This document shows positions 15,841-41,044 of a stretch of DNA of 64,000 bases, in pieces. How positions within the stretch are numbered: position 1 is the stretch's first letter; each line of letters begins with the position of its first letter. The notes below the pieces were generated by a model. That model was not told where the DNA came from. It ran no database searches and worked only from the letters and a program-made list of their open reading frames with translations. Both the position numbers and the translations under genes were made by a program. Source of the DNA: Crossaster papposus (lineage: Eukaryota; Echinodermata; Asteroidea; Velatida; Solasteridae); contig JBAIAA010001587.1 of assembly GCA_037893245.1 (NCBI GenBank), positions 1 through 64,000 on the forward strand. The letters run 5' to 3'.

Positions 15841-15861
15841 TGTATTATTCCAAATCACAAT

Positions 15862-17120: not shown

Positions 17121-17273
17121 CTTAAATTGCGCGATGCGGTCAACAACCGGGGCAAATACTGACACGAACTACACGGTAGACACGAATTTTACATCGGCGT
17201 CAGCGCGCGCGAAATCGGCGAAATCCACGCGTCGCGTCAGCAGATGCGTGGCGGCAAATCTGGCGGCAACATC

Positions 17274-17528
17274 ATGGCAGTAGAACTACCTGTAAATGTT
17301 GACGATTTTGGAGAGTTTTGCAGAGGAAAATATCTCTCTGAGTTGACAACAAGCCTCACAATAGGAAGGGAAAGGGGCAAACATATTGTTGATTTTCTGA
17401 AGGGGAGGGGACTGCCTAGTACGACTACCGGTACATTCAAGAATTTTGTAAAGCGGAGGGGCTTCCAGGTTTTAAGTTTCCCTGCTCTCGATCTTCACGA
17501 TGTTCTTTGCACACCTGCAAATGCTAAG
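17274..17528 (+). CDS. Exon 1 of the integrase-protease gene
   Basis: 85 codons ending in phase 0 at AAG|GTAGGC. The sequence MAVELPVNVDDFGEFCRGKY matches no domain I recognise. An upstream in-frame ATG at 17244 would add ten residues; I prefer 17274 for its context. Confidence 0.65.
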
Positions 17529-20500
17529 GTAGGCCATGCATAATATTTGTTGAGTTTATTATTAATTATTATCGTGTGATGATGCATTAAGTTAATGTTA
17601 GCCCTAGGCCTAAAAGGTTTTTGATGGATTTTTCAGTTTTTTGTGAAGGCAAAAAGATTTTTCGGTTTTCATCACTCACGATGGAAACTATTCAGTCGTA
17701 CCCAAGCCAACTCGTACCCAAGTCAACTCGTACCCCAAATTTTACACTTAAGTCAACAGGTACCCTTCCTTCTTATTCCTCCATGAGGTACCCGACTAAA
17801 CTTAGTGCACCTGTTTTGTTTTGTCTGATTTTCATTACCGGTATATACCGGCCCTGATTAAGATTTTCCTTTTATACTGGCACGGGTACGAGTCGTCCCG
17901 GGTACTACGAGTCGTCCCGGGTACTACGAGTCGTCCCGGGTACTACGAGTCGTCCCGGGTACTACGAGTCGTCCCGGGTACTACGAGTCGTCCCGGGTAC
18001 TACGAGTCGTCCCGGGTACTACGAGTCGTCCCGGGTACTACGAGTCGTCCCGGGTACTACGAGTCGTCCCGGGTACTACGAGTCGTCCCGGGTACTACGA
18101 GTCGTCCCGGGTACTACGAGTCGTCCCGGGTACTACGAGTCGTCCCGGGTACTACGAGTCGTCCCGGGTACTACGAGTCGTCCCGGGTACTACGAGTCGT
18201 CCCGGGTACTACGAGTCGTCCCGGGTACTACGAGTCGTCCCGGGTACTACGAGTCGTCCCGGGTACTACGAGTCGTCCCGGGTACTACGAGTCGTCCCGG
18301 GTACTACGAGTCGTCCCGGGTACTACGAGTCGTCCCGGGTACTACGAGTCGTCCCGGGTACTACGAGTCGTCCCGGGTACTACGAGTCGTCCCGGGTACT
18401 ACGAGTCGTCCCGGGTACTACGAGTCGTCCCGGGTACTACGAGTCGTCCCGGGTACTACGAGTCGTCCCGGGTACTACGAGTCGTCCCGGGTACTACGAG
18501 TCGTCCCGGGTACTACGAGTCGTCCCGGGTACTACGAGTCGTCCCGGGTACTACGAGTCGTCCCGGGTACTACGAGTCGTCCCGGGTACTACGAGTCGTC
18601 CCGGGTACTACGAGTCGTCCCGGGTACTACGAGTCGTCCCGGGTACTACGAGTCGTCCCGGGTACTACGAGTCGTCCCGGGTACTACGAGTCGTCCCGGG
18701 TACTACGAGTCGTCCCGGGTACTACGAGTCGTCCCGGGTACTACGAGTCGTCCCGGGTACTACGAGTCGTCCCGGGTACTACGAGTCGTCCCGGGTACTA
18801 CGAGTCGTCCCGGGTACTACGAGTCGTCCCGGGTACTACGAGTCGTCCCGGGTAGTACGAGTCGTCCCGGGTAGTACGAGTCGTCCCGGGTAGTACGAGT
18901 CGTCCCGGGTAGTACGAGTCGTCCCGGGTAGTACGAGTCGTCCCGGGTAGTACGAGTCGTCCCGGGTAGTACGAGTCGTCCCGGGTACTACGAGTCGTCC
19001 CGGGTACTACGAGTCGTCCCGGGTACTACGAGTCGTCCCGGGTACTACGAGTCGTCCCGGGTACTACGAGTCGTCCCGGGTACTACGAGTCGTCCCGGGT
19101 ACTACGAGTCGTCCCGGGTACTACGAGTCGTCCCGGGTACTACGAGTCGTCCCGGGTACTACGAGTCGTCCCGGGTACTACGAGTCGTCCCGGGTACTAC
19201 GAGTCGTCCCGGGTACTACGAGTCGTCCCGGGTACTACGAGTCGTCCCGGGTACTACGAGTCGTCCCGGGTACTACGAGTCGTCCCGGGTACTACGAGTC
19301 GTCCCGGGTACTACGAGTCGTCCCGGGTACTACGAGTCGTCCCGGGTACTACGAGTCGTCCCGGGTACTACGAGTCGTCCCGGGTACTACGAGTCGTCCC
19401 GGGTACTACGAGTCGTCCCGGGTACTACGAGTCGTCCCGGGTACTACGAGTCGTCCCGGGTACTACGAGTCGTCCCGGGTACTACGAGTCGTCCCGGGTA
19501 CTACGAGTCGTCCCGGGTACTACGAGTCGTCCCGGGTACTACGAGTCGTCCCGGGTACTACGAGTCGTCCCGGGTACTACGAGTCGTCCCGGGTACTACG
19601 AGTCGTCCCGGGTACTACGAGTCGTCCCGGGTACTACGAGTCGTCCCGGGTACTACGAGTCGTCCCGGGTACTACGAGTCGTCCCGGGTACTACGAGTCG
19701 TCCCGGGTACTACGAGTCGTCCCGGGTACTACGAGTCGTCCCGGGTACTACGAGTCGTCCCGGGTACTACGAGTCGTCCCGGGTACTACGAGTCGTCCCG
19801 GGTACTACGAGTCGTCCCGGGTACTACGAGTCGTCCCGGGTACTACGAGTCGTCCCGGGTACTACGAGTCGTCCCGGGTACTACGAGTCGTCCCGGGTAC
19901 TACGAGTCGTCCCGGGTACTACGAGTCGTCCCGGGTACTACGAGTCGTCCCGGGTACTACGAGTCGTCCCGGGTACTACGAGTCGTCCCGGGTACTACGA
20001 GTCGTCCCGGGTACTACGAGTCGTCCCGGGTACTACGAGTCGTCCCGGGTACTACGAGTCGTCCCGGGTACTACGAGTCGTCCCGGGTACTACGAGTCGT
20101 CCCGGGTACTACGAGTCGTCCCGGGTACTACGAGTCCGATTAAATGGGCCTTGTCACAGAGCACTGGTGTTATTATTTATACTATTTAACTTTTATTTGT
20201 TTTCAGGATGCACGTTCAAGTAACTGTGAAGGTTTCTTTGGAAAATGGAGGCGTGTGGCATACGTTGAAGATTTTCACAGCATTTTGCTGAAGGAGCACA
20301 CCGTGAAACATGGAGGATATAAAAATCTGCTGAATAAGGTATATTCATTTTTTCTATAATTATTCCTTGATCTATTGCATTGCATGTAACAACTGATGTC
20401 CTGTCATTTGGTAACTTGCGTATATGTATAACTGTTCAGGATAGTCACTTAGTTATTAGTTAACTTTACAATTATTTTAAAATAATTGATCCATACTTCA

Positions 20501-23500
20501 TAAATATCATACTGAAGTCTCACTTATGAATTGTGTCTGCTGAGTTTCACTAATGCCGGCATGTACATAGTGTTTCTGGATAAGAGTCGTCTTATTGTGA
20601 CCAGCATCCGTGCACTCATTATGACCTGTAATATTGTTAGTGTTATGTGCTAATTTGCTAATGTGCTTATTTGCTAATTTTGTTCACAAGTACATATAAC
20701 ACGATTATGTACTAATAGACCAGAGACATAATGACGTCATGTTTTGTGTATAAATGTAAAAAAAACATGACGTCATTATGTCTCTGGTCTATTAGTACAT
20801 AATCGTGTTATATGTACTTGTGAACAAAATTAGCAAATAAGCACATTAGCAAATTAGCACATTACACTTTCCTATCAATGCAAAGTCGGGACACCAGATG
20901 ACGTAGGGACAGACTCGCTTATAGGAAAGCGCACTTGTAAACAAAGCGTGATGTCAAAAATTCTTGGGCTTATTTGATCTTGAAACAGTGGGGATCCGAA
21001 AAGTACTCTTGTTCTAAAGCTTAGATGGCTAGAAAATGATTTACATGCTTGATGAGTTGCTTAAAATTACATGCATTTTCTCTTTCAGGTTACAAAAGAC
21101 TACTCTTGTCTTCCACGAAGTGCTGTTCAAAAGTTTGTGAACCTGTGCACTACCTGCAGGCTTCAGGCAAGACAGAAGACACAAGCCCCACTGAAACCAA
21201 TTATAGCTAAAGGATTTAATGGGAGATGCCAGGTACATTATATAGAACATTTTAAATTGAGCCATTGTACTCCAAATAACCAATTTAGTTTAAAAAACAT
21301 TTTTCGAGATGCACTTGGATAACATATAACGGAATGCACGATGGATTTTAAAAACCAGTGTTATGTTGCTGTGCGTACTTAGTGATTTACATATGTATGA
21401 TCATGGAGAGGGTTTTTGTAATAATGGTGAAACATTCAATAGAAAACTTCTGTCACTAGTCCAGGTAGCACATCATACTGCCACACTGGTGTACGTGGGT
21501 GCTAATGCTTTATTTTGAATTATATGCTGCCTTTTCCATGTTTTTAGCTAGGAGCCATAAAATGCACAGCCAATGGCTAGAAAATATTTGTTTAAAGAAG
21601 AGATAATTTCTTTTTGTAAACTCTTGACATACTATGACTACTAGTTGCGTATATTTGGGTTTTTTTCACAAAATTGTCGTTGAATCGCCTCCGCCCGTCA
21701 TTTTGAAAATAGTTTGGTCAGACTTTCCCGGGAATCGTGCGGCAACGTTACAAATTATGTCACGGGTAAAATAGCAACTCCTTTACTTTAATCATAAAGC
21801 TGTGAGTGTTTTTTATCAAGCTTAATTCGTTGAGCAATGATGGTGTCCACCTCAACTACGATTTACTGGTAAAAAAAATCTTTTTCAATCGCTACACCAC
21901 GTCTTACGTCACCTAGTGCGCAAGCCACGCCATATTTTGTTGCGTAAGCCTCGGACTTGCGCACTGTCAAACTTTTGTGAAACTGTCATAAACGAAATAT
22001 TGGGAAGCCAAAAGTGCCCCAGCTTACGCAATAAATTCTGGCGCTTTAGGTAAGGTTTTGTAAAATCGGCTGCTCACATTGGAATAAATAAAATTACGAC
22101 GATAAATTTGCATCCCTAAATGTTTTTCGTTTTAACTCTTCCAGGTTGACCTGATTGATATGCAGTCATCAGCTGATGGTAATTACCACTGGATTGGACA
22201 CTACGTGGACCATTGGTCCAAATTTCACATCATCTTCCCATTGGCAAGAAAATGTGCTGCAGATGTTGCATATGCCCTTGAGACATTCGTCTTCCCTTAT
22301 GTTGGACCACCAAGAATACTCCAATCAGACAATGGGAGAGAGTTTGTCAACGAAATTGTCCGCAGTTGTCTACAGAGTTGGAACGGTAATTTATTTTCAA
22401 AGTAATGTCAGTGAACCAAATAAAGTAATTTTCCTAATTCTCTTTGTCCCTTTTGTTAGTTACATGTTGTGATTGATCTATGTGCTGTCTTTTAGTGGAA
22501 CATGCAATTGCCAAGTTTTGGTTAAAGCCGTTTTCTAAATTCTAATGATTGAGCAGCAAAACTAAATTTGGGTCATAGTTTTTTTCTGAAGCAGAGCAAT
22601 GTGCAAGGATTGTTCACAACCTCACAGTTGAAGCTCAACGGATAGTAGTGCAAGGTGTTTGTATAGTGTGCTATTTTTTATGCAAAGTTAACATTAATTC
22701 CACAGGAGATCCAACTAGCAATATCATTAATGGAAGGCCCCGTCACCCACAGTCTCAAGGGTGTGTAGAGAGGGGGAACAGCACCATCAAGCGCATGATA
22801 AGGGCGCGTGCCAGAGAAGAGAACTGCGAAGGAACTGACATACCATGGAGTACTTGGCTTGGTAGAATCATGTGTGAGTTTTATTTGTGTATTAAAACAG
22901 GACATTCGAAAATACCTGTGATTAGTCATAAAAATAAAGAGTGTTCTTGAAGACATTTACATCAGCTGGGTTCTCATTTGCTTAAAAAAAAAAGAGCTGT
23001 TATGAAAGATTGACTTAAGACGGTTGTGATTGCTGTATGAGAAGTATCATAATTTTAGTAGTCTAAATGATGGTACTAAAGATGGCATAACTATTTCATG
23101 TGGAAGACACTTAATACTAGCCTGTGTAGCTAGGTTGTGCGTGAATGTTTATTCATGAGAACTCGGCTACATTAAAGAACAGCTCTCCTCAACTAACTCG
23201 CCAATAGCCTAGTTGGTAGAGAGGTAAGCTATAGATCGATAGGTCTGTGGTTACAATCCGGCTATCGTTAACGTTCATCTTTTACTTTACCAAATTTTCT
23301 TGTGGGTTATTTTAACAAGGCTGAGGAAAAACCGATTTAGGTTACCTTGTTACCAAAGTGCCTTGAAAAAGAACCGCAGCACGAGGTAGTTGATATGTTG
23401 TCAATCCTTACCTCATTGTATATTTTTTATTTTGTTTTCTGCAGTTGATATGAATTGCCAGGTGAGCACTGCCACAACTAGAGCCCCATATGAACTCGTG

Positions 23501-26500
23501 TTCGGACAAAACCCAGTGGGTTCTAATGTTCCAGGGCACAGTAGTGACCAAATGCTGTTTGAAGAAGATCTGGATGAAATGATTGATACTCAATCGCCAT
23601 CTGAAGCCATACCATCGACTTCTTCAAACCTGTCACGTGAAGCATGCGAGTCACCAGCGGCCAGTCCAAGCCACACGCCAGCGGCCAGTCCAAGCCACAC
23701 GCCAGCGGCCAGTCCAAGCCACACGCCAGCGGCCAGTGCAAGCCACACGCCAGCGGCCAGTGCAAGCCACACGCCAGCGGCCAGTCCAAGCCACACGCCA
23801 GCGGCCAGTCCAAGCCACACGCCAGCGGCCAGTCCAAGCCACACGCCAGCGTCCAGTCCAAGCCACACGCCAGCGTCCAGTCCAAGCCACACGCCAGCGT
23901 CCAGTCCAAGCCACACGCCAGCGGCCAGTCCAAGCCACACGCCAGCGGCCAGTCCAAGCCACACGCCAGCGGCCAGTCCAAGCCACACGCCAGCGGCCAG
24001 TCCAAGCCACACGCCAGCGGCCAGTCCAAGCCACACGCCAGCGGCCAGTCCAAGCCACACGCCAGCGTCCAGTCCAAGCCACACGCCAGCGGCCAGGGCA
24101 AGCCACACGCCAGCGGCCAGTGCAAGCCACACGCCAGCGGCCAGTGCAAGCCACACGCCAGCGGCCAGTGCAAGCCACACGCCAGCGGCCAGTGCAAGCC
24201 ACACGCCAGCGGCCAGTCCAAGCCACACGCCAGCGGCCAGTGCAAGCCACACGCCAGCGGCCAGTGCAAGCCACACGCCAGCGGCCAGTGCAAGCCACAC
24301 GCCAGCGGCCAGTGCAAGCCACACGCCAGCGGCCAGTGCAAGCCACACGCCAGCGGCCAGTGCAAGCCACACGCCAGAGGCCAGTGCAAGCCACACGCCA
24401 GAGGCCAGTGCAAGCCACACAAAATCATACCTGGGAACACAGGAAAAACACTTGAGTCAGAAAGGTTGCTGATGTAATGTACCAGAAAAATGTTAAGCGT
24501 ATGAAGGAACGGTTTGACAGAAAAGTTTGTACAACATCCTTCAGTGTTGGATATAATGTATCTCTTCGAATCCCTCATCCTGATAGAGTTGCGTTGGACA
24601 TGTCTCGGCTGCCTTGCCTAATTGTGGACGTGACCAAAGGCACATCAGATCGGCCACAGTATACTTTACGGTACGTAGCCTTTTGCAAGTATGTCATTGA
24701 CATTGACAGCATTTTTCTCTTGTGCAGATATGAATTTTACAGTATTTTATGTGGTAAATGTACATTAATATGTCATATAATATATTAGGTGTCACCATGG
24801 TGTGTTGAGATGCAAATATTCAGCTGGGGAGTTGGAAATCTACAGAGGTGGTGTAGAAGTTGGCGCAACTGATTGGAAGGCGGAACCCACATTACCCTTG
24901 CGAACAGCTGTTAGGTTGGAGAATGGAAGAATAAAAGGTGAATTGTAAATACCAAGAGCTTGTTTATAAAAGTGAAAGCATTGTAAAAATTAACATAAAT
25001 TGTATGTAGGCCTGAATTGTGTATTTGCTCAAGGCATTGTTCATTGAATAAAACATTGTTTTTAAAGTGTTTCTTTTTTTGCATTTTTCATCACATATTT
25101 TAGTCACGAAAGAGAAATGTACAGCGTCAAAGTCCACTGACTCTGAAGAAGGGCAAAAACGGAAGAAAGAACAAGGCGACAAGGGGAAAAAGAAGGCAAA
25201 GTTCAATAGTGAAAAAGGTAAGCTCTTTTTGCGTAAAAGCAGCATTACATTTGTCTGTGCATCGTTAATGGCCTTATAACTGTCGACTTGTACAACACAC
25301 TACTTCGCTATATAATAATACAGATGTATATACTTGCTTTGTACATGAAGGTGGGAAAAAACAGGAGAATAAACCGGACAGAGGCCCTAAAACTAACATG
25401 GAAAATCCACACCCAGTGCGTGGTAAGTGTCCCCTTCTATATGTTGTTGATGCAATCCTATTGGGTGTACCTACATGCACTTTGATTATTGGCAAAGGGA
25501 TTTGTTTGCAGTTGGTCTAGAATTAAAATTAATCTATTCAATATTACCTTGACAGACCGATTAGTATAAAATGATATGAAAAACTAAATTTTATCAGGTA
25601 CTGAACAAGTTTTCATGCAGTATTCGATCAAATGTCTTAACTATGACATTATTTGCTTCAGCATTACACCGATGTGTGCATATATTTATATGCAAACAAA
25701 GATACAAACACAACAACACTGCTGGGTATAGTTGGTGGAATTTGTGTAACCAGTTATACAGTAATTATGGTTGAAATTGGAGTATTTCGAAAAAGTTCTT
25801 AACCCTCTGATCATTTTGTACACAAAAACAATGCCATATAGATGTCTTCACAGGGAATGGATACAAATTCGGGATTGTGTGAGGTATTTAGTGTGATTAA
25901 AAACAGTATCAAACCTACTAGTGTAAAACTGCCCAATCGCATTGTTCCTTTATTTATCCGAGTTGGTTTTGAAGTGATTGTGACAAATGCGGAAACATGT
26001 TCTCATTATTGTACAACTTTTTCTTTGACATACAGAAACACTTAATAGGACGCAAATCCAACCACTGCTGCAGGCCATCCGTGAAATGGATGTTCCTCGT
26101 CTAGACTCGGCATTAATTCCAGAGGCTGTGCGATCGGACCCAGCACAGTCATTTATCTTTGAGATGAGTGAAACTTACGATGACGAGATTGAAGACATTG
26201 CCAATGAAATTGTCTCGTGGGAGGAAATGAGCGTAGGGCAACTTATTTTGGTAAGTGTGGTCATCGCATGCTCTGTACACATGAAAATTGCCCCACTTGT
26301 ATTGCTACAGACTGCCGTAGAGACACCTGCTCATCTGACTACAGTGCAAGCCGTACCAAAGCAGCATTTCACAAAAGTTACCATTGTTAATGTGGAAATC
26401 ACCAAACGAAATCTGGCGACCTTGGATGGTTTCTTGGATGACAAGGTAAGTAAAATGTACCTGGGAAAAATAATAGTACCTATACAAATTGTGCAATTTC

Positions 26501-29500
26501 AAAATGGTGATATCAGCATTAGTTTGTCCATTTATGTTTGTGTATTTCTTAAACACAAGATTTTTATTAAAAACTTGTTGATTATTTTCCTCTTTCTCAA
26601 GAACCAATTCCACTTCAGTTGTAAGTATAAAAAGAAACTGCCTAATTTTCATTTTTTGTTTGTAGGTGTGCTGTTGCTTCATCTCTAGCTGTCGTTTAAA
26701 CATCTTCCTCTTTATCTTTCTTTCTAAGTATGATTATATAAAAAGTAAACAATTCAATTCGAAAATTAATTGTTCAGGGTGCCACACCAAAAAATCACGG
26801 ACACACCAACTTTCTTTTTTCCTTTTTTAAAACTCTTCATGTGCATGCATATACATATAGCTTTGCAATACCTCATATGCTTGTACCCGAATTATTAGAA
26901 TCTGCTTAGTTAGTACACTAATATCGTTCTTCTTTGAGTAGTTTCAGTTGCTGCTTTAGTTTGTGTCAATGTCTTGGCCTTATGAAAATTAGTGGCACAA
27001 TATTATTTTTTATGATTTGCAGAACACCGAAAGCCAATAAACACGTCATGGGAGATATTACAGTTTTATACACCCACCTTTCATTATTAACACCCACTTT
27101 GATCATTCCAGTAAATCCCCAACACTTGTTTCATTTTGTAGAAAATATGGCACTAACAATTCTAAATTCTACAAATCTAACTGGGATTTTGTTGCAGACC
27201 ATAAGCTTCTTGTTCCAAGATGTCTGAATGTCTTGATCGTGCTCTATCATGTATTGTGTTGTTGTGTCATATTCTGATGTGTTTTTTGTTTTTTTGTTGG
27301 GGTGTTTGTTTATTTGTTTGTCTGTTGGGATGGTTTTTATTTATTTTTTATTTAACAGGCATTGCCTAATGGCTGGTTTAGGATTATGTGTGCTATAATA
27401 CTAATGTGGAACTTTTTATTACTCAACCAAAATAAATAACTAACTAATTAAATATTCATAAGTTTGTGCAAAAAGACTGGTAAATTCAAACACCACATAT
27501 GATTATATTTATAAGATTCCGGAAAGTAAATAAACATTTATTTTAAAGTCGTTACTTGTTTAATTTATTACAAAATTGTGACAAACCAAATTCCGTTTCA
27601 TTGTTTGCAGGTTATTCATGCCTTCTTAAACATATGTGTACAGAGACATCCCCGAGCACTTGTACTGCAGTGCTTCAATGCTACTAAGTGGGCAAGTGGG
27701 CAGTTTGATTGGCTGTTTCTTCAGGTACAAAAACATAAATGAACTGTATATTTTCTATCCTTTTTCAAAAAATAATACATGTACGTGTATATCTTATTAA
27801 TTCTTGTGTCTATTAAATTATACTTGATGACCATGTCATAGAACAATACTGATTTAGAACCTGTACAAATCACATAAACAAAGGGTTTTACTAAGGATCT
27901 GGGTTAGAGGATTAGCATTCTATATGGAAGATAAGAAAAGATGATAAAAAGGTTCCTTAACAATAACTGTACATGTCAATACCGCAAATGGAGGGCTTTA
28001 ATGTAAGTACACACTCACATACTGAGGACACCTTGCAAACCGAGCGCGTCCTCGGTATGAAATATTGTGAAAAATGGCACTTTCGTGGCCGTTTTTGACT
28101 GTTGGTTAAATATCAAAGCGTTTGGGAGGAGTCCTCGGTTGACGCATAAGACCTGACGTGAGGCAGTATGCACATTTTTTTCCCCGTCAAAAAAAACGCA
28201 AACGGGATTACTCTGAATGGCATAGCGCCCTCCGTTGGTTGCGCGTGTGAAAATGACGTAAATGTAAACATGTATGTACAATTACATGTGTACATACATG
28301 ACAACATACTCGTTTAGACATGTCTTAACTATTATAACGTTGTTTTGGCCTAAGTGCATATTGTAGTTTATGCGAAGACGTGGTCATTTGCAGCTAGCTA
28401 GGTGTACCATGGAGCTGGAATAAATGGTAAGTAGAGATATTGTATTTGGAAGCTTGCATGTTACTCGCTATGTATGACTATGAGTATGACTGAGTATGAA
28501 TGTAGCAGAGTATGACATACCCGTCATCTGGGGTGACTTTGATAGTTTTTGGCACTTCTGATATCTTTTGAGTAGGATAAATGGGGTTTTCACCCTTGAT
28601 TCTTTCAACTAATAACAATGTGCCTCTTGGCTATCAATAGACCAAATCATTTCTTCATCAGATTGTGTTTTCATATTTTTTTTTAAACCACAACAAAATA
28701 TCAAAGTCACCCCGTTGTCGGGGTGACATTGATAACCAATGAATAAAGCCTATGTTATCAAATTAACCCTCTTATTGGGGTGACTTTGATAATTTTAATT
28801 CGTTTTAAAAAAACACAAGCTACAAAACTATTCAAACAATACAAATATTTGGGTTTTCTGATAACTTTAATGGTTTGATAGCCCCTCGACCCAGCCTTCC
28901 GTTTATAGACCCGTGGCATGATTGTTACGGTACATCAGAGCTCAATCAGTATCTGCGAAGACAGAAAAGACAAATACTATCATAAAAACACAACTACACA
29001 GAGTTTTGGACACTTTGTTGTTCAATTTTGACATTCGGGGTGATTTATCAAAGTCACACTGAGTATCAAAGTCACCCCAGATGACGGTATATGACGTGCT
29101 CATTTACGTTGTAATGTAATTTTTAGTTAAATGGCCTCGATCTCTTACTCTAGTCTATAGGATGATATGGGAAGTGAATATGCCTAATTTCAGAATAATA
29201 TAGAAGTTATAACCAAATTTAACTGCTTTATTTTGCCAACGCAAGCATGAGTTGTTGAGCACCGTGCGAACAAGAAATAGTTAATTGTAGTTATTGTATA
29301 AATAATAAAACAAATAAGTAGCCACAATTATTAATATTTAATTGTATAAGCCAATTTGGTATTCCAACTGCACATGCGCACATTTTTCCTTGACGATTTT
29401 TCTTTCGATATAAACATTTCATCGATTGCGTGCAAAAGCATAGCGGGGTACCAGCAAATTTCAAGAGATCGTCGTGTTTTAAAGTTACTAAGTAACATAT

Positions 29501-32500
29501 TTTTGTTTACGTTTTGGTGTTTTCAGCCGCTTTGTGTGGCCAAACTTTTGTTCGAACAAATATTATTTATTTTTTTCGATTTCACAAGAAAATGTAAAAA
29601 ATGCGGATTTGGTTACCGCGTCCCCCATAGCCTTGTGTGCATTTGTCTGCCGTGTTTGTATCACTTGACCTCCTTGAGAAAAATTGTTGAATCTTGTTGT
29701 GCACATGCGCAGTCGGAACTCCAAAGTGGCTTATTATCAGTTTAATGGTATATTGTTGTTGTATTGTTGTGTAGTCTAGGTGTGGCTGACAGAACTACCA
29801 TAACAAACATGAAACGAAGTAGTCGTCTTGATGGAACCTTGACAAATCACCAGCATCATGAAGGGGAGAACGTAATCGCACTGTGGCCTCCAGATTCATC
29901 ATGGTATCCTGCCGTAATAATCTCCTTCACCAAAGGTAAGTGCGGAGCCTCTAAAAGGACATATGACGAAAACAAATGGAATGCCCTCGTAATTTGTGGG
30001 TTCACGTTAACGTGAACCCACATTAGGGTTGTGGGTTCCGTAGGTAAGAAATGTAATCCATAATGTAGAATCCCATTTGTTACACATAAATTAAGACAGC
30101 TGTATACCCTCTTACATCCCCCATGACATGTACCACATGTAAATAAACAATGCCATTTTTCCTAAACTTGATTCCTCCCCCCCCCCCCCTTTCAGAACCA
30201 AAAATATATATGATCTGTAAACAACAAATACTTTTCAACATTCCACTCCCAATTGCATGTAATCTCTTTAAAGTTTAATTAGTTGAATTTGTGGCTTTCT
30301 TATCAGGAAAGTACTGCGTCCGATACACTGATGGTGTGACACGCTGCCTATTTGAGCACCAGGTGAGAAAATTACCATAGAATGCATTAATTAAAAACAG
30401 ACAGGTTAGGAAGAATACCAATGAAATGCGTAATTCTTCCAAATAGGCACTTGGGGAGACAAACTAGCGTAATTTTTTAGGTAATAAGGAGACAGTGGCA
30501 CTTAGGGAGACATTTTAGTGTCTCCCTAAGTGCCTTAGAAGTCTTAGAAGTCATATAATGAATGCACATGACACAAATTCTCATTTGAATTACATATCTT
30601 TTTATGAAGAGGATAAATACCGGTATGTCGTCAGTTAAGTTGCACATCAAGGGCGAATGTTGTTGCTTGTGATGGTGTTAAAATAGATAGTATATTTTAT
30701 AGATAACACAAAGAAATTGTTATTTGTTTAAAATTAAATGTGATTTTGATTTGATTTCTATGCCAGGTGGCCCATCCGAGTTTCTTGAATCCGCACTTAA
30801 ATGGTTCAGACAGTCTACAAAGCAGTTCCATTTGGGATGATGGCCCACAGGCTGATTCTGGTACAGAACCTGCCGTTTGTACTGCTCCATATGAGGTAAT
30901 TCACACACACTCAACTTGTTTTCAGAACCCAAATATTCACTCTGGGTGCCCAGAAGCCAGAAACAAATTTATAAATCAAGTGGTTTTTTTGCAAGCACCC
31001 CCCCCCCCCCTTTCACCCCCCCCCCCCCACCCCACACCCCACCCCTCCCACCCCTACTCCCAACTCCCTCTCCTTCAGAGGGGCAACTAGTCCGAGGCAA
31101 TTAGGCATATGCGTCTACCCCGAAAGAAAATAACAGTGGTGTTTTGGGTTTTTTCCACTCGTTCTAAATCATAAACGTTTTCTGCATCCGGCAACATAGA
31201 AAGTAGTAAGATTTTGATTCATTAGTGAACTTGTTTTCTGAACCCTATCAAATATTCACTGTGGGTGCCCAGAAGCCAGAAACAAATTTGTAAATAAAGT
31301 GTTTTTGGCAAGCACCATCCCCCCCCTTCCCCCCCCCCCCCCCCCCCCCACACACCCACCCCTCCCCCACACACCCACCCCTCCCCTCGCCCTCCCACCC
31401 CTCCCCAAAGAAATTGTTATTTGTTTAAAATTAAATGTGATTTTGATTTGATTTCTATGCCAGGTGGCCCATCCGAGTTTCTTGAATCCGCACTTAAATG
31501 GTTCAGACAGTCTACAAAGCAGTTCCATTTGGGATGATGGCCCACAGGCTGATTCTGGTACAGAACCTGCCGTTTGTACTGCTCCATATGAGGTAATTCA
31601 CACACACTCAACTTGTTTTCAGAACCCAAATATTCACTCTGGGTGCCCAGAAGCCAGAAACAAATTTATAAATCAAGTGTTTTTTTTGCAAGCACCCCCC
31701 CCCCCCTTTCACCCCCCCCCCCCCCCACACCCCACCCCTCCCACCCCTCCCACCCCTACTCCCAACTCCCTCTCCTTCAGAGGGGCAACTAGTCCGAGGC
31801 AATTAGGCATATGCGTCTACCCCGAAAGAAAATAACAGTGGTGTTTTGCGTTTTTTCCACTCGTTCTAAATCATAAACGTTTTCTGCATCCGGCAACATA
31901 GAAAGTAGTAAGATTTTGATTCATTAGTGAACTTGTTTTCTGAACCCTATCAAATATTCACTGTGGGTGCCCAGAAGCCAGAAACAAATTTGTAAATAAA
32001 GTGTTTTTGGCAAGCACCATCCCCCCCCTTCCCCCCCCCCCCCCCCCCCCCCCACACACCCACCCCTCCCCCACACACCCACCCCTCCCCCACACACCCA
32101 CCCCTCCCCTCGCCCTCCCACCCCTCCCCAAAGAAATTGTTATTTGTTTAAAATTAAATGTGATTTTGATTTGATTTCTATGCCAGGTGGCCCATCCGAG
32201 TTTCTTGAATCCGCACTTAAATGGTTCAGACAGTCTACAAAGCAGTTCCATTTGGGATGATGGCCCACAGGCTGATTCTGGTACAGAACCTGCCGTTTGT
32301 ACTGCTCCATATGAGGTAATTCACACACACTCAACTTGTTTTCAGAACCCAAATATTCACTCTGGGTGCCCAGAAGCCAGAAACAAATTTATAAATCAAG
32401 TGTTTTTTTTGCAAGCACCCCCCCCCCTTTCACCCCCCCCCCCCCCCCCCCACCCCACACCCCACCCCTCCCACCCCTACTCCCAACTCCCTCTCCTTCA

Positions 32501-35500
32501 GAGGGGCAACTAGTCCGAGGCAATTAGGCATATGCGTCTACCCCGAAAGAAAATAACAGTGGTGTTTTGGGTTTTTTCCACTCGTTCTAAATCATAAACG
32601 TTTTCTGCATCCGGCAACATAGAAAGTAGTAAGATTTTGATTCATTAGTGAACTTGTTTTCTGAACCCTATCAAATATTCACTGTGGGTGCCCAGAAGCC
32701 AGAAACAAATTTGTAAATAAAGTGTTTTTGGCAAGCACCATCCCCCCCCTTCCCCCCCCCCCCCCCCCACACACCCACCCCTCCCCCACACACCCACCCC
32801 TCCCCTCGCCCTCCCACCCCTCCCCAAAGAAATTGTTATTTGTTTAAAATTAAATGTGATTTTGATTTGATTTCTATGCCAGGTGGCCCATCCGAGTTTC
32901 TTGAATCCGCACTTGAATGGTTCAGACAGTCTACAAAGCAGTTCCATTTGGGATGATGGCCCACAGGCTGATTCTGGTAGAGGACCTGCCGTTTGTACTG
33001 CTCCATATGAGGTAATTCACACACACTCAACTTGTTTTCAGAACCCAAATATTCACTCTGGGTGCCCAGAAGCCAGAAACAAATTTATAAATCAAGTGTT
33101 TTTTTTGCAAGCACCCCCCCCCCCTTTCACCCCCCCCCCCCCCCACCCCACCCCACACCCCACCCCTCCCACCCCTACTCCCAACTCCCTCTCCTTTAGA
33201 GGGTCAACTAGTCCGAGGCAATTAGGCATATGCGTCTACCCCGAAAGAAAATAACAGTGGTGTTTTGGGTTTTTTCCACTCGTTCTAAATCATAAACGTT
33301 TTCTGCATCCGGCAACATAGAAAGTAGTAAGATTTTGATTCATTAGTGAACTTGTTTTCTGAACCCTATCAAATATTCACTGTGGGTGCCCAGAAGCCAG
33401 AAACAAATTTGTAAATAAAGTGTTTTTGGCAAGCACCATCCCCCCCCCCCCCCCCTTCACCCCCCACCCCCCCCCCCCCCCCCCCCACACACACACCCAC
33501 CCCTCCCCCACACACCCACCCCTCCCCCACACACCCACCCCTCCCCTCGCCCTCCCACCCCTCCCCAAAGAAATTGTTATTTGTTTAAAATTAAATGTGA
33601 TTTTGATTTGATTTCTATGCCAGGTGGCCCATCCGAGTTTCTTGAATCCGCACTTAAATGGTTCAGACAGTCTACAAAGCAGTTCCATTTGGGATGATGG
33701 CCCACAGGCTGATTCTGGTAGAGGACCTGCCGTTTGTACTGCTCCATATGAAGCCTCAAGTGCCGAGTCACAGAGATCATCAACCGAGGCTACTGAGACC
33801 GGTCACATAACGGTCATGGAGACCAGCAATGAAAGTGGGCACAGGAAATGGGACAAGAAACACTTTTGCTTTTTCTGTGAAGTACCTCAATCTAAGTTGC
33901 CCCGTCATCTCCAGTCATGTCACAAAGAAGAGAGCGAAGTTGTAGAGATTGCGTCTGAGACCAACCCAAGTGCCCGTAAGATACTTCTGTGGAAAATCCG
34001 CAATGTTGGTAATCATAGGCACAATTGCCAAGTCCTTCGGAAAGGCCGGGGTGCACTTATTGTAGGATATAGGCCTAATCATAAGGTATCTCCACATGCA
34101 TACGGACCGTGCATATATTGTTATGGCTATTATGTGCGAAGTGATCTCTGGCGTCACCAGTGCCCACTGAAACCTGCACTCCCTGCACACTCGCATGGTA
34201 GCACTACCACAACTCCTCTGCGTAGATGTGTTGCTCACAAGAGTGATTTGTTAAAGCCTCCACCTGTCGGTGTGTCTTTCCAGTTGAACCAGGTTCTTAT
34301 TCCGATGAAGAGAGATGAGGTGACTCTGCTGGCCAAGAATGACACTTTGATTGTGGAAGTAGCCAAGCGGGAATACGCGAAACTCGGGCACGATGTAGAT
34401 CAACATGGCTACATCCGAAACAAGATACGGGAATTGGGTCGTCTTGTCATACAACTCCGCAAGAATACACACCAACCAAATGCATCACTTGAATTATTTG
34501 TCCACCCCCACTACCTGAATGATATCATCAAGGCTATTCACGGTATTGCTGGCTTTAATGAAGACAAGCAGTTGTATGATGTTCCGTCTCTAGCTTTAAA
34601 GATTGGACATTCCATCAAGAAGTGTGCACTCATACTTAAAGGAAATGCTCTAGAGTCTGGCCAAAAGCAAAAAGCCCAACACGCTGAAGAATTTCTGCAG
34701 TTGTGCGAACTGACCTGGCGAGACCGTGTATCCACCCATGCACACAGAACACTGTACCAAGGAAAGCGCAACCAACCTCAAATTCTGCCGACAAATGCTG
34801 ATGTTGTGAAAATGTCGGCGTTCCTCCATGAAGCTGGCAACAGAGAAGTGGAACTTGTCCAGGATGCTCGGGGCGAACAAATTGGACCAGCTTGGAAGAG
34901 ATTGAATGAAGTCGCACTGTGCCACCTTATTATGTTCAACCGCAGAAGGCAAGGGGAGGTATCAAAAATGAAACTAGAAGACTTTCAGAAGCACACAACA
35001 GCTAGTGTGAACGGGGAATGCCTGCTGACTGATCTTGAACGGCATCTGTGCAAGATGTTCAGAGTTGTCGAAATAGTTGGCAAGAGGGGTCGAACTGTTC
35101 CTGTGCTTCTCAGCAATGAGGTGGTGGCGTGGTTGAGTGCTCTGATTGCAAAGAGAAATGAAGCTGGAGTCGCCCACGACAACACCTACTTGTTTGCACG
35201 ATGTTCTTATGGAGGTACAGGTCATATAAGAGGATGTGACTGTATAAGATTGTACGCAGACATGGCGGGCCTTGACAATGCTGCCAGCATCCGGTCTACA
35301 AAACTTCGTAAGCACGTGGCAACCGCATCGCAAATTCTTGCCTTGAAGGAACATCAACTTGAAACACTTGCAAACTTCATGGGTCATGATTTGCGTGTCC
35401 ATCGTGAATACTACCAGTTGCCAGATACTGTGCAGAGGGTCACCAAACTTTCTAGACTTTTTCTCAGCTTGGAGAGGGGAAACTTGCCTTCCCAGCAGGG

Positions 35501-38500
35501 CAAATCCCTGGATGAACTGCATGTCACTGGTGGTAAGGACACAGTTGTTTTAAATTATTTACTCAACAGCAAAAGAAAGACATTAATTATTGCTTTTGTT
35601 GAAAAATATTTGATCAGTAATTACTATTCACTAATACATCTTCAACAGCGAAAGAAATGCAAGAAATAACATTTTGTTATCAGTTCACAATATATGATAA
35701 CAAATGGTATACGTGTTTGTGTGCATTTCTTTTGCTATTGCTCCTGCATTACAGAACAAGAAAGAGAAATAGAGAAAAATTAGAAAGAAACAGACCACAG
35801 AAATTTGACAAGAGTTGAGTCCACTTTTCTGAATTTACATGCAGGACAACAACCAACTGTCGGGTATGTGTGCATTAATCTAACAAAAACTGCTCTTTGT
35901 GACTTGCAGAAGGCTTCACTAGTGACGAGTACAGCGATAACAGCAGTGACAATTCCTGTGATGTGCCCAGTGAAAACAGTAAGTTTAGGCTTTTATGTGT
36001 CTGTATTTTAACCAGTTCGCGCCGGATGACGTATATAAACGCAAAAATTTTCCAAAATTCAAAACGAATGACGCATAAACCTGCCAAGTTCAAGTTCGGA
36101 AATGTATGTCAGCAGCGCGCAAGGCCGGAAATGCGTGGGTGTGCTTCCCGGCACTATCAGCCTGAACCCGCTTCAGATCGAGTTTCGTAAAAAATAATCC
36201 CGCCCGTGGGCTTGGCGATGTTAAAATAATCCCGGCGCAAACTGGTTAAGTCGGGCTGTCTTTAAAAAAACAATTGTCTGTCTGTCCATTTGTTTGTTCA
36301 TCTGGCTATCGGGCTGTCTGAATTAAAAGTGCCTAAATATCTGTGTTTGATATCGACTTGTTTCCTATTTGACATTAGGTACTCGACAGGCTCCTATCAG
36401 TGTTCCATCTGGAAGTCTGGCATCTCTGAACAACTCGAGACGAGTGAAACGTCGTCCCTGGACTGCCGAGGAGAAGGGAGACGTTACGAAGGGTTTGCAG
36501 AAATTCTTTCTGCTGAAGAAGCTTCCTGGCAAACGAGACATCGAAACATCCTGTCTTGTGGCACTGCAGACACGAAGCTGGAGGAACATCAAAGACTTTT
36601 GTCGGAACAAAATGAAGCTTCATCAAAGCTAAGCAGGGTGTTTCGTCAGTTCACATACATGTACGGATGCGTCAGAGTACTTGACTATTTAGAATTTGCA
36701 ATCGCAATGATGACTTTAGAATGCACATCAATATGAAACCAATGGACAACCAGCAATTTAGTGTAGTGTCCTCACTTTGATAGGTGTAATTCACACACAC
36801 TCAAGTGTCCTCCATTGGATAGAATGACAAGTATGCCCTCAGTGTGGTAGTGTCTACATGTATGCGTGTGTGTGTGTGTGTGGTTGCAGACATTTGCAAG
36901 TTCGGTCCACTTGACTGGGACACTATAAATAAATTGTTTTAATGCTGCTTGTTTAAAGACATGATTGGTACTCTCCCTTCAACATTGCATACATATTTTG
37001 CTAATTTTGCTGTAACAATTCTGAATGATCATTACCAATGACAATTTCTCGTAACTTCTAATATCCTTACAAATTATTCACTGTGTGCAGAAGAAATTCA
37101 CATGTGTTGACTGGGTCTTCCTACCAATCAACGTCAGTGACAGCCATTGGATGCTGCTTGTAGCAAATCCAAGGGAGCAGACTGTCGCAGTCCTAAATTC
37201 AACAGGAGAGACCCCCCACATCACGGCCTATGTCAACCACTGGAGGTCAATAATTTTAAGTTGTTTTTATTTTAATCTAGCTTATGATTGGTTGAGACTC
37301 GATCATGTGGGGGTGTATTAAGTTATAGAAAAGGTACGCGCCATTTGTGGGTAATAATTATTTGACTTAAACTCCACCCACTACTCTATTGTCACTACTG
37401 TTCCATTATTTAGCACAAACTGAGCGTACATGGATTTGTTCTTTATAGAAGTATGGGTTATACTAGCAACACACATTAACGAGACAGGATACCATGTAAG
37501 CTAAAATATGGCCCCTGTACATTTACACAAAAGTCTTAAAATATTGCCAAAAGAAAAGTCATAAAGTTGGCAGCTTTTGACTGTACATTTTATTAAAAAG
37601 GTATTTATTAATGGGAGTGTGCGACCCCTGTATTCACTGCGTGATAATGACCGGTTTGGGAATGGCTGCTGTTAAGAGTGGTCATCCCCCACCATGGGTC
37701 TCGCACTGTTATTCCCGAGTTAATTCACAATGGGACTTAAAAGTCATTTGTGCAGGACAAGTGATCTGATGATTTTGACCTGGATTCAGTAGCAGATGGA
37801 CAGGACAGTCTGCTCCAAAATGCACTGCAGAAACATCTCCAATGAATAAAAATGTTTTTCTTTCTGCACAGAAAGTTTATGCAGGTCAGGTCAAGCAAGT
37901 GTGCTGAGAAACTGCTGAATTGGAGGCAAGTAAGCTATCCAGCTAGCCGTCAGCATGATGGGAAAAGTTGTGGAGTATTCATTCTCATGGTAAATAAATG
38001 ATTTATGTCTTCAATTTAACAGCATGAGATTGATTCTAGTTCTTAGAAATGCAGTACATTTACTTGTATTTTGTAAATTGATAAACCAGATTTTGTCTTT
38101 GCCAAAAACAATGATGAAAATCCAAATCATCTGCAACACAAACACACCGCCCTGACCCACACCTAAGTTGAGTCCTACACTCCATCGCTGCATTTTTCCC
38201 ATAAAAAAATCACCAAGTACATGTTTTCTTTATATGCAAGTAAGAACATCATAAGGGTGTGTGGTTGATTTTTTTCTTCAGTATGCAGAAGCTATTCTTG
38301 CAGGAGTGCCACCTCTTATAATGCGGCAACAACATACTCAAATGTACATCAGATACATCAGGAGCAGCATTATGCAGGAGAACAAAAAACGGAATGGCAA
38401 CTGTTCAGCGGTCAAGTGCTGCTCGCCAAAATCAAAGAAAGTGGATTGGATCCAATGTGATCATTGTGACAAGTGGTACCACTTTCTATGCGTTCTCATT

Positions 38501-38560
38501 GATTCCAACATTGAGACAATGGCATACTACTGTGATGACTGCCGGTCTAATGGATGCTAA
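17274..38560 (+). CDS. DDE integrase - Ulp1-like protease - PHD finger protein (15 exons)
   Basis: Exons: 17274-17528, 20207-20338, 21089-21232, 22145-22385, 22706-22873, 23445-24670, 24789-24937, 25104-25217, 25324-25422, 26036-26250, 26311-26445, 27611-27724, 37091-37245, 37872-37989, 38282-38560. All are GT-AG and phase-consistent, giving about 1,180 aa if one extra base near 24464 is discounted. Domains in order: HHCC zinc motif (HTVKHGG...CTTC, exons 2-3); rve-type integrase core with VDLIDM, QSDNGREF and GCVERGN supplying D179, D239 and E279; a Ser/Pro/His/Thr repeat tract; a conserved MYQKNVKRMKERF segment; a Lys-rich stretch; a Ulp1/C48 protease with DSHWML and QHDGKSCGVF; a PHD finger. 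The integrase resembles the KRBA2/Ginger-type group (family memory, not searched). It is a transposase or a gene derived from one. The start ATG has a good context (ATCATGG). Confidence 0.8.
17886..20136. repeat. 19-bp satellite array, ~118 copies, in intron 1
   Basis: The unit ACTACGAGTCGTCCCGGGT repeats almost without variation for 2,251 bp. A block of about seven consecutive units at 18852-18980 reads GTAGTACG in place of GTACTACG. The resulting open frames are an artefact of the repeat: 19 is not a multiple of 3, so all three phases are read through every 57 bp. Degenerate precursor-like strings (AACTCGTACCC) lie just upstream at 17698-17740. Confidence 0.95.
20645..20862. repeat. Perfect or near-perfect 101-bp hairpin in intron 2
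   Basis: Arms 20645-20745 and 20762-20862 are reverse complements separated by a 16-bp loop. The arms include CATAATGACGTCATG next to the loop and AATTTGCTAATGTGC at the outer end. A transcript would fold into a long double-stranded hairpin. It may be a fold-back MITE. Confidence 0.95.
22145..22873 (+). CDS. Exons 4-5: catalytic core of the integrase
   Basis: Exon 4 (22145-22385) holds the first two acidic residues (VDLIDM and SDNGREF) and exon 5 (22706-22873) the Glu of GCVERGNSTIKR. The second Asp and the Glu are separated by 39 residues. The intron between them splits a Gly codon (phase 1). All three catalytic residues are intact, so the fold could be active. Confidence 0.85.
23195..23365 (+). 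mobile_element. tRNA-derived SINE, family A, in intron 5
   Basis: Plus-strand copy with TAGCCTAGTTGGTAGAGAGG and a diverged box B (GGTTACAATCC), then the shared CAAATTTTCTTGTGGG body. Confidence 0.75.
23654..24421 (+). repeat. Coding minisatellite, 24 bp x 32, in exon 6
   Basis: The unit encodes PAASPSHT with variants PAASASHT, PASSPSHT, PEASASHT and one PAARASHT, in frame with the integrase. Because the unit is a multiple of three with no stop in any frame, long open frames appear on both strands, but only the frame continuous with the integrase C-terminus is supported. The encoded tract would be a disordered linker. Confidence 0.9.
26311..27724 (+). CDS. Exons 11-12: N-terminal half of the Ulp1-like protease domain
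   Basis: Exon 11 (26311-26445) ends in ITKRNLATLDGFLDDK and exon 12 (27611-27724) continues VIHAFLNICVQRHPR. Together they match the usual opening of C48 proteases (a leucine-rich strand, then 'L-D-D-x-V-I'). The active-site half lies 9.4 kb downstream in exons 13-15, after the intron holding the tyrosine-recombinase gene. Confidence 0.7.
27725..28520. other. Intron 12, left part: no gene recognised
   Basis: A possible 5' UTR exon of the nested gene ends near 28426 with donor ATG|GTAAGT; support is weak. A near-palindrome built on ACATGTACATACATG lies around 28270-28300. Confidence 0.35.
28521..29087. mobile_element. TIR element with CCGTCATCTGGGGTGACTTT ends, 567 bp
   Basis: Inverted ends of 24 bp. 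The GGGGTGACTTTGATA motif recurs internally in both orientations (about 28700-28735 and 28775-28795). Such repeated subterminal motifs are typical transposase-binding sites; that role is inference. Confidence 0.85.
29809..36632 (+). CDS. Tyrosine-recombinase-like protein with Tudor-like, zinc-finger and SANT-like domains (nested gene)
   Basis: Exons: 29809-29935, 30307-30362, 30767-30895, 31464-31592, 32187-32315, 32883-33011, 33624-35532, 35910-35978, 36379-36632. All phases match, giving 976 aa if every exon is used. Domains: a Tudor-like segment (ENVIALWPPDSSWYPAVI...YCVRYTDGV, about 21-58); five copies of a 43-residue module (62-276); two Cys/His fingers (CFFC...HLQSCH and CIYC...HQC); a tyrosine-recombinase core with NRRRQGEV (about 672), GKRGR hairpin Lys, LRKHVAT (about 794), MGHD (about 818) and the nucleophile in REYYQ (about 828); a C-terminal SANT/Myb-like region starting RRPWTAEEKGDV. 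The His of the usual HxxR box is replaced (TKLR). The family resembles Crypton-type recombinases and related uncharacterised animal proteins. The whole gene lies in intron 12 of the integrase gene. Confidence 0.8.
29996..30021. repeat. 26-bp perfect palindrome
   Basis: GTGGGTTCACGTT followed by its exact reverse complement, in the first coding intron of the nested gene, just downstream of the first coding exon. Confidence 0.8.
30711..33760 (+). repeat. Five tandem copies of a ~700-bp exon+intron unit
   Basis: Copies of the 129-nt exon start at 30767, 31464, 32187, 32883 and 33624 (spacing 697, 723, 696, 741). Each unit carries the acceptor TTTCTATGCCAG, the exon, the donor GAG|GTAATTC (copies 1-4), and an intron with two related halves, each ending in a long poly-C/CCCACCC tract. 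Copy 5 has GAAGCC in place of the donor and runs into the long recombinase exon. Copies 1-3 read GTEPA where 4-5 read GRGPA. Length differences are mostly in the C tracts. Confidence 0.95.
33624..35532 (+). CDS. Main exon of the tyrosine-recombinase-like gene
   Basis: 1,909 nt, open throughout, carrying the fifth repeat module, both zinc fingers and the entire recombinase core. The exon ends in phase 1 at GGTG|GTAAGG. Reading through the donor would add about 45 codons before a stop at 35669; the spliced form is preferred because the next exon matches in phase. Confidence 0.85.
36012..36245. mobile_element. TTAA-targeting TIR element, inverted copy
   Basis: It has the same family and length (234 bp) as 7154-7387, flanked by TTAA at 36008-36011 and 36246-36249. 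It lies in the last intron of the recombinase gene, so it inserted after that gene did. Confidence 0.85.
36379..36632 (+). CDS. Last exon of the recombinase gene: SANT/Myb-like tail
   Basis: The acceptor GACATTAG precedes 36379 and phase 1 fits the preceding exon. RRPWTAEEKGDVTKGLQKFF and RSWRNIKDFCRNKMK look like a Trp-rich three-helix SANT/Myb-type DNA-binding fold. AATAAA lies about 290 bp after the stop, and a (TG)n run at about 36866-36882. Confidence 0.75.
37091..37989 (+). CDS. Exons 13-14: active-site half of the Ulp1-like protease
   Basis: Exon 13 (37091-37245) has SDSHWMLLV with the catalytic His and, 17 residues later, VLNSTGE where Ulp1 proteases have Asp. Exon 14 (37872-37989) supplies the oxyanion Gln (SRQHD) and Cys (KSCGVFI). 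The Asp-to-Asn change keeps a hydrogen-bonding side chain. Reading through the exon-13 donor gives stops. Confidence 0.8.
38282..38560 (+). CDS. Exon 15: end of the protease domain and PHD finger
   Basis: After YAEAILAGVPPLIMRQQ comes a Cys-rich segment: CSAVKCCSPKSK, WIQCDHCDKWYHFLC and YYCDDC, the C4HC3 pattern of a PHD finger. PHD fingers commonly bind histone H3 tails, which could direct integration to chromatin (inference). The stop is at 38558-38560. Confidence 0.85.
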   Translation, partial: YAEAILAGVPPLIMRQQHTQMYIRYIRSSIMQENKKRNGNCSAVKCCSPKSKKVDWIQCDHCDKWYHFLCVLIDSNIETMAYYCDDCRSNGC

Positions 38561-38572
38561 GTTTCTCATTTA

Positions 38573-39372: not shown

Positions 39373-39374
39373 TA

Positions 39375-41043: not shown

Positions 41044-41044
41044 A

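What the first reader, a model, noticed from the sequence alone, without database searches (positions are those of the whole stretch)
17274..38560. A complete tyrosine-recombinase gene nested in an intron of a DDE integrase-protease gene
The integrase gene can be followed through 15 phase-compatible exons. Its protease domain is split by a 9.4-kb intron (27725-37090) that holds a second, 9-exon, phase-compatible gene on the same strand encoding a tyrosine-recombinase core. Two unrelated DNA-breaking chemistries (DDE and Tyr) thus share one locus. The recombinase gene may be an element that inserted into the other element or gene, or the pair may move or be expressed together, for instance by alternative splicing between exon 12 and the nested exons (exon 12 ends and several nested exons begin in phase 0).
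Basis: partly seen in the sequence, partly recalled or inferred. Interest (0 to 1): 0.87.

Follow-up and report, generated by a model that had tools for sequence, protein, structure and literature searches.

The report
One jumping gene inside another
In an animal genome, a large transposon that moves with one kind of DNA-cutting enzyme has been hit by a second, unrelated and very recently multiplied transposon that carries a tyrosine recombinase, and its many nearly identical copies show where this second element begins and ends and suggest how it moves.

Summary
The nested genes are real. The outer 15-exon integrase-Ulp1-PHD gene lies in a Ginger-like DNA transposon, 17019-42601 (TGTTG...CAACA inverted ends, 4-bp duplication GTTA/GTTA). 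The 9-exon gene (Tudor, zinc finger, tyrosine recombinase, Myb-like) belongs to a separate 8,899-bp element, 27970-36868, inserted in intron 12. The two other long outer copies found in the same genome lack it, and one shows the empty site; these two share flanks and count as one lineage. So this is an insertion, not a conserved pair.

The recombinase element is the real find. Its exact 30-base left end occurs 337 times, and 69 of 69 scored recombinase ORFs (1,683 first-look candidates) are open and at least 99% identical. In 18 copies with both junctions read, fixed half-sites (TACATGT / ACATGTA) adjoin 6-bp spacers, with TGCGTG at one end or both in 18 of 18. Four head-to-tail junctions join the ends as ACATGTA-TGCGTG-TACATGT. 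This fits circle-mediated tyrosine recombination with 6-bp coupling sequences; circles were not observed. The Crypton paper I read in passages found no terminal repeats in animal Cryptons and proposed a circle only by analogy. Elsewhere the element forms arrays with a Rep-like segment.

The parts
17019..42601 (+). Ginger-like DNA transposon, 25,583 bp including the insert
   Evidence: Inverted ends plus TSD; both ends repeated elsewhere in the genome
17015..17018 (.). Left copy of the 4-bp target duplication GTTA
42602..42605 (.). Right copy of the 4-bp target duplication GTTA
17019..17132 (+). Left terminal inverted repeat, begins TGTTGAGCGCA
   Evidence: Gapped alignment to the right end; 40 scored genome matches all start at its first base
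42499..42601 (-). Right terminal inverted repeat, ends TGCGCTCAACA
   Evidence: 40 full-length genome matches
17274..38560 (+). Outer transposase gene, 15 exons: 17274-17528, 20207-20338, 21089-21232, 22145-22385, 22706-22873, 23445-23636, 24466-24670 (start uncertain), 24789-24937, 25104-25217, 26036-26250, 26311-26445, 27611-27724, 37091-37245, 37872-37989, 38282-38560
20207..22873 (+). Exons 2-5: integrase zinc finger and DDE core
   Evidence: Pfam rve 2.9e-8, H2C2 3.7e-4, rve_3 0.005; homologues
27611..37989 (+). Exons 12-14: Ulp1-type (C48) protease part, split by the 9.4-kb intron 12
   Evidence: Peptidase_C48 6.1e-8
38282..38560 (+). Exon 15 with PHD finger and stop
   Evidence: PHD 1.7e-6
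27725..37090 (+). Intron 12 (9,366 bp here; 475 bp in copy C, 678 bp in copy B)
27970..36868 (+). Tyrosine-recombinase element, 8,899 bp
   Evidence: Empty site in copy C; same ends in other copies
27964..27969 (.). Left 6-bp spacer TAACTG, present in the empty site, hence target-derived
27970..27976 (+). Left half-site TACATGT
   Evidence: 18 of 18 copies with both junctions read
36856..36862 (+). Right half-site ACATGTA
   Evidence: 18 of 18 copies with both junctions read
36863..36868 (+). Right 6-bp spacer TGCGTG, the element's own
   Evidence: 16 of 18 right ends
29809..36632 (+). Recombinase gene, 9 exons: 29809-29935, 30307-30362, 30767-30895, 31464-31592, 32187-32315, 32883-33011, 33624-35532, 35910-35978, 36379-36632
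29809..30362 (+). Nested exons 1-2: Tudor-like domain
   Evidence: Tudor_3 9.2e-7, above its cut-off
30709..33751 (+). Tandem ~700-bp repeats, each with a 129-bp exon or, in the last, the start of the long exon
   Evidence: element length varies in steps of about 700 bp between copies
33624..35532 (+). Nested exon 7: last repeat unit, zinc-finger-like stretch and tyrosine-recombinase core (R442, K487, R562, H588, Y597 of its 636-aa product)
36379..36632 (+). Nested exon 9: Myb-like stretch and stop TAA
   Evidence: No Pfam hit; similar C-terminal stretch in P0008 and P0006 (read by eye)

Best explanation
A tyrosine-recombinase DNA transposon (27970-36868) inserted into intron 12 of the transposase gene of an older Ginger-like DDE transposon (17019-42601). 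Shown by comparison: the two elements have separate ends, separate copies and different ages; the outer element exists without the insert; the recombinase element has hundreds of left ends and fixed ends. Inferred: it moves as a double-stranded circle. Its two ends join as ACATGTA-TGCGTG-TACATGT, the recombinase exchanges strands across the 6-bp spacer with a target in alternating TG/CA-rich DNA, and the mismatched spacer resolves so that one end keeps the element's TGCGTG and the other the target's 6 bp. The outer gene may still splice over the insert, because the insert ends 222 bp short of exon 13 and the exon 12 and 13 splice sites are intact; this was not tested.
For: Copy C of the outer element runs from window base 27970 straight to 36863; copy B also lacks the insert. 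The 19 other recombinase copies whose right end was reached stop aligning to the window within 36863-36882. Exact left end 337 times, reversed control 0. 69 of 69 scored recombinase ORFs open, at least 99% identical. TGCGTG at one end or both in 18 of 18 copies, right 16, left 5, both 3. Joined-end core at 4 places, reversed control 0, one read in full (L077). Age: recombinase exon differs by a mean of 0.03% among 20 best-match copies, outer copies have Ks about 0.02. Recombinase fold and conserved catalytic positions.
Confidence: 0.85

Rival explanations
1. The pair is one composite system: a DDE transposon that carries a tyrosine recombinase as a working part, moved together by the outer inverted ends (as in the fungal MarCry-1_FO).
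For: Both genes lie on one strand inside the outer inverted ends, so a move of this copy would carry both. A DDE plus recombinase composite is known in a fungus (PMC3212892, passages).
Against: The two other long outer copies lack the recombinase; the other 17 copies with both junctions read have other flanks; the two differ in age.
Confidence: 0.04
2. The recombinase gene reached the intron, and most of its copies arose, by segmental or array duplication rather than by recombinase-driven movement.
For: Head-to-tail clusters, a 12.6-kb array unit, and four copies in the same target repeat (L063, L064, L065, L067).
Against: 15 different target contexts with the same end bases and an empty site at the window insertion; the spacer rule in 18 of 18.
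Confidence: 0.08
3. The outer gene is a domesticated host gene and not part of a transposon.
For: 14 introns is more than the 0-4 reported for Ginger1 elements (PMC2836005, passages). Ka/Ks of 0.32-0.36 between copies fits constraint.
Against: Inverted ends with a TSD: 0 of 300 shuffles gave a TG...CA pair with a 4-bp TSD, 7 of 300 gave one without the TG...CA condition. Both ends repeated in the genome (40 scored of 117 and of 110 first-look candidates). 4-bp TSDs at the four independent sites where both ends were read.
Confidence: 0.05

Closest known systems
Ginger1 DNA transposons (Bao et al. 2010, PMC2836005, passages read; Ginger1-9_HM carries Ulp1 and PHD)
   Same: Integrase zinc finger, DDE core, Ulp1 and PHD; TGTNR ends; terminal inverted repeats; 4-bp TSD; GT-AG introns
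   Different: TSDs here GTTA, TCTC, TGAT, CCCA instead of CCGG or CCGT; 25.6 kb instead of 2.6-7 kb; 14 introns instead of 0-4; no perfect YPYY or GPY/F test done
Crypton transposons of animals, CryptonA and CryptonI (Kojima and Jurka 2011, PMC3212892, passages read)
   Same: A DNA transposon whose own enzyme is a tyrosine recombinase, in animals; a Crypton recombinase in an intron (ATF7IP) is on record
   Different: Here a Tudor start, repeat exons and a Myb-like end, 9 exons, no DUF3504 hit, and defined ends with half-sites and 6-bp spacers; that paper found no C-terminal domain and no terminal repeats in animal Cryptons
MarCry-1_FO (PMC3212892, passages read)
   Same: DDE and tyrosine-recombinase genes within one pair of inverted ends
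   Different: There several copies carry both; here the other two long copies carry only the DDE gene
Tn916/Tn1549-type transposons of bacteria (mechanism recalled; Tn1549 integrase structures appear)
   Same: 6-bp non-identical spacers beside the ends, joined-end core, relaxed target choice
   Different: Bacterial, conjugative; no sequence kinship tested beyond fold
Imagin, a Ginger1-derived gene in an intron of MMUT (PMC12863088, passages read)
   Same: A transposon-derived recombination gene nested in an intron
   Different: There the Ginger1 gene is the guest, domesticated and conserved; here the Ginger-like gene is the host and the guest is recent

Membership tests
Ginger1 | Integrase with zinc finger and DDE core | tested here: met
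   rve 2.9e-8; H2C2 3.7e-4, below its own cut-off
Ginger1 | C-terminal Ulp1 or OTU protease | tested here: met
   Peptidase_C48 6.1e-8
Ginger1 | TIRs of about 40-270 bp starting TGTNR, 4-bp TSD | tested here: met
   About 110 bp gapped TIR, TGTTG, 4-bp TSD at four independent sites
Ginger1 | TSD sequence CCGG or CCGT/ACGG | tested here: not met
   GTTA, TCTC, TGAT, CCCA
Ginger1 | YPYY and GPY/F motifs | not tested
   No motif alignment to published Ginger1 was made
Ginger2 | 4-bp TSD at RTATAY targets | tested here: not met
   None of the four independent sites read fits RTATAY
Crypton (animal) | DNA transposon encoding its own tyrosine recombinase | tested here: met
   Element ends and gene, fold
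Crypton (animal) | YR related to DUF3504, as CryptonA is | tested here: not met
   At E up to 1 only PF00589 hit the window ORF; that Pfam holds a DUF3504 model is recalled
Crypton (animal) | No C-terminal domain and no terminal repeats | tested here: not met
   Myb-like end; 7-bp half-sites in inverse orientation at the two ends
Tn916-type coupling-sequence transposition (works like) | 6-bp spacers, one from the donor and one from the target | tested here: met
   18 of 18 copies have TGCGTG at one end or both; target origin of the other shown at one site only; model recalled
Tn916-type coupling-sequence transposition (works like) | Circular intermediate | not testable with these tools
   Only genomic joined-end junctions seen, 4 places
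Starship (captain recombinase) | DUF3435 recombinase domain (criterion recalled) | tested here: not met
   No such hit at E up to 1
DIRS/Ngaro | Reverse transcriptase beside the recombinase (criterion recalled) | tested here: not met
   Apart from the recombinase exon, no open frame of 160 aa or more within 27970-36868, on either strand, except frames overlapping that exon; no RT scan of the short frames was made

The most novel reading that the evidence does not exclude
The recombinase element is half of a two-part mobile replicon. In 12.6-kb arrays it alternates with a segment of about 5.2 kb that encodes an HUH-type Rep-like frame and an SF3-like helicase frame, and both boundaries in the array unit examined carry the att-like core (TGCGTG|TACATGT). 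Circles of this composite could be amplified by rolling-circle replication and then integrated by the recombinase, which would explain hundreds of nearly identical copies and head-to-tail arrays in an animal genome.
Probability: 0.12. Interest if true: 0.85.

Novelty: new variant of a known kind. Interest (0 to 1): 0.62.

Why it matters
A transposon inside a transposon is ordinary. The guest is not. In the Crypton paper that I read in passages (PMC3212892), Crypton boundaries are called difficult to characterise, no terminal repeats were found in animal Cryptons, and movement through a circle is proposed by analogy. The listings of my eight paper searches showed no title or abstract start on this recombinase family or on an empty site for an animal recombinase transposon; listings were capped and the library lacks most subscription papers. 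Here one genome gives ends, an empty site, joined-end junctions and donor/target spacers, so the mechanism can be tested with a 20-bp site and one recombinase.

Tried and rejected
(1) The inverted repeats 10609-11922 and 38573-39372 first looked like the ends of one 28.7-kb element. Rejected: each is a copy of one short TIR element with its own GGGGCCGTA...TACGGCCCC ends.

(2) A composite co-moving pair: rejected on the copies seen.

(3) A profile search of the recombinase alignment against PDB sequences found at E up to 1 only a serine-rich chain and zinc fingers, six in all; the fold was recognised only by structure comparison.

(4) Viral-contig scan with the recombinase alignment: 54 pattern matches, none a relative.

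(5) Rfam on part of the Rep-like array segment (L082): no match.

(6) Strict target-arm specificity: not claimed, because a register slide by 6 gives nearly the same count.

(7) 206 bp in copy B at the same (GT)n: only short simple-repeat matches to the insert; unexplained.

(8) Number of outer integrase copies in the genome: asked, never answered. A count of the recombinase element's right ends did not complete either.

(9) A first divergence figure for the recombinase exon was wrong because loci on the minus strand were not turned; redone.

(10) Limits. Protein searches scored 7999, 7124 and 702 candidates, and one search listed 120 of its 234 hits; no listed hit bears both the integrase and the recombinase Pfam label, but most recombinase relatives bear no label at all, so absence of a fusion protein is weak evidence. 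The 20 recombinase copies whose right flanks were fetched were picked from the best 69 scored of 1683 first-look candidates, so their divergence is biased low. Of these 20, L042 (cut by a contig end), L049 and L051 (no left end in the list) were left out of the junction table; the window copy was added, giving 18. In one search, 50 of the 69 scored ORFs were paired by hand-entered places. In the wider shuffle control (40 shuffles, 1-17273 against 38561-64000) the real window had 7 inverted pairs with a 4-bp TSD, of which only the 17019/42601 pair was TG...CA; 2 of 40 shuffles had such a pair without TG...CA, none with.

Full report
WHAT IS THERE. The organism was not identified. The closest named relatives of the recombinase protein by identity are from the starfish Acanthaster planci (75-77%), so an echinoderm is likely but not shown.

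OUTER GENE. The 15-exon model is sound: 13 of 14 introns are GT-AG and in phase; only the exon 6/7 junction, across a 24-bp minisatellite, is unresolved. The protein reads integrase zinc finger, DDE core, Ulp1-type protease, PHD. P0154, an 837-aa protein from a 7.9-kb contig, has the same order in one protein (rve, H2C2, C48 at E 0.006 and below cut-off, PHD), which supports exons 1-15 as one gene; a full-length alignment did not line up the protease parts well. In two other copies in the genome the same exons recur in order, with exons 12 and 13 only 475 bp (copy C) and 678 bp (copy B) apart. Ka/Ks against the window is 0.32 (B, 24 changes) and 0.36 (C, 23 changes). Both copies lack 6 bp of exon 1; copy B also lacks 1 bp in exon 6 and has one in-frame stop; in copy C the alignment of exon 15 breaks off early.

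OUTER ELEMENT. A scan for inverted ends with a target duplication gave one TG...CA hit: TGTTGAGCGCA at 17019 and its inverse ending at 42601, flanked by GTTA. In 300 dinucleotide shuffles no TG...CA pair with a 4-bp duplication appeared; 7 of 300 had one without the TG...CA condition. The genome confirmed it: the left 255 bp match at 40 scored places (117 first-look candidates), 40 of 40 from the first base; the right 272 bp match in full at 40 places (110 candidates; 22 further weak rows are the end's own palindrome). TSDs are 4 bp at the window site (GTTA), at the site shared by copies B and C (TCTC), at L006 (TGAT) and at L008 (CCCA), that is at each of the four independent sites where both ends were in hand. 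Paired ends imply many short copies of about 1.4 to 4 kb and three long ones (window 25.6, B 31.8, C 22.8 kb). This matches published Ginger1 in termini, TSD length and domains, but not in TSD sequence, size or intron number (PMC2836005, passages). I therefore call it Ginger-like.

THE INSERT. Copies B and C align to the window in collinear pieces of about 94-99% identity along the outer element, and both skip the recombinase gene. Copy C runs from window base 27970 to 36863 with a 3-base overlap in its own coordinates; its site reads CAATAACTGTGTGTG.... Copy B has an unrelated 206 bp there. B and C share flanks, so they count as one lineage.

COPIES AND AGE. The first look found 1,683 candidates for the recombinase exon; 69 were scored, 69 open and at least 99% identical. 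The exact 30-base left end occurs 337 times, reversed control 0. Among 20 best-match copies the exon differs by a mean of 0.03%, and the last 1,432 bp of the element by a mean of 0.15% in 20 copies. Fifty of the 69 ORFs were paired with a left end; 49 imply a length of 6.5 to 10.2 kb, mostly in steps of about 700 bp, so the number of repeat exons seems to vary; one implies 15.1 kb.

ENDS AND MECHANISM. In 18 copies with both junctions read (the window and 17 others), the left end is TACATGTCAATACC and the right end GTCTACATGTA plus 6 bp. TGCGTG stands at the right in 16, at the left in 5, at both in 3, and at one end at least in 18; in the window, where the empty site is known, the other spacer (TAACTG) is the target's. 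The joined ends, ACATGTA-TGCGTG-TACATGT, are a 7-bp inverted repeat around 6 bp. They occur as head-to-tail junctions at four places, reversed control 0, one read in full (L077). This is the layout expected of a tyrosine-recombinase core site (two inverted repeats around 6-8 bp; PMC3212892 passage), though that passage gives 11-13 bp arms and here 7 are perfect. The circle and the strand exchange are inferred. Targets lie in alternating TG/CA-rich DNA; specificity beyond that is not proven.

ARRAYS. At C146, C355, C130 and C337 the right end is followed by one and the same foreign sequence. At C146 this is a segment of about 5.2 kb with two open frames, one weakly like REP_ORF2-G2P (E 0.009) and one like parvovirus NS1 (E 0.004), both below the curated cut-offs; it also contains stretches 80-90% like the element's own ~700-bp repeats, and the next recombinase element follows at GGGTGCGTG|TACATGTC. 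Whether this is a repeat that was hit and then amplified, or a partner, is open.

VERDICT. Nested insertion: shown by comparison. Co-moving system: not supported. Circle-mediated transposition: inferred, well supported, untested. Expression and chimeric splicing: untested.

Noticed in passing
10609-11922 and 38573-39372: Two inverted copies of a short TIR element (GGGGCCGTA...TACGGCCCC); the second lies 12 bp after the outer gene's stop codon.
   Followed up: partly
L078-L083 (C146, C355, C130, C337): Arrays with a 12.6-kb period in which the recombinase element alternates with a ~5.2-kb segment carrying Rep-like and SF3-like frames.
   Followed up: partly
4665-5714 and 63565-64000: A collagen-C1q gene and the start of a second copy; direct repeats 425-5193 and 60034-64000 show a duplication about 59 kb apart on either side of the locus.
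   Followed up: no
2325-3089 and 61477-61937: Satellite-like tandem arrays of a 153-157-bp unit.
   Followed up: no
17887-20136 and 23654-24420: 19-bp minisatellite (118 copies) in intron 1 and 24-bp minisatellite (32 copies) between exons 6 and 7 of the outer gene; both aligned in copies B and C too.
   Followed up: partly
44242-45414, minus strand: Reverse-transcriptase ORF of a LINE-like element (RVT_1 1.2e-27).
   Followed up: no
45530-46722: Long inverted repeat, 574-nt arms, 95% complementary, 45 nt apart.
   Followed up: no
copy B, C31 near 152305-152510: An unrelated 206-bp stretch at the same (GT)n where the recombinase element entered the window copy.
   Followed up: partly
window 30709-33751 and the loci: The number of ~700-bp repeat units, each with a 43-aa in-frame exon, seems to vary between copies of the recombinase element, so the protein's repeat number may vary.
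   Followed up: partly
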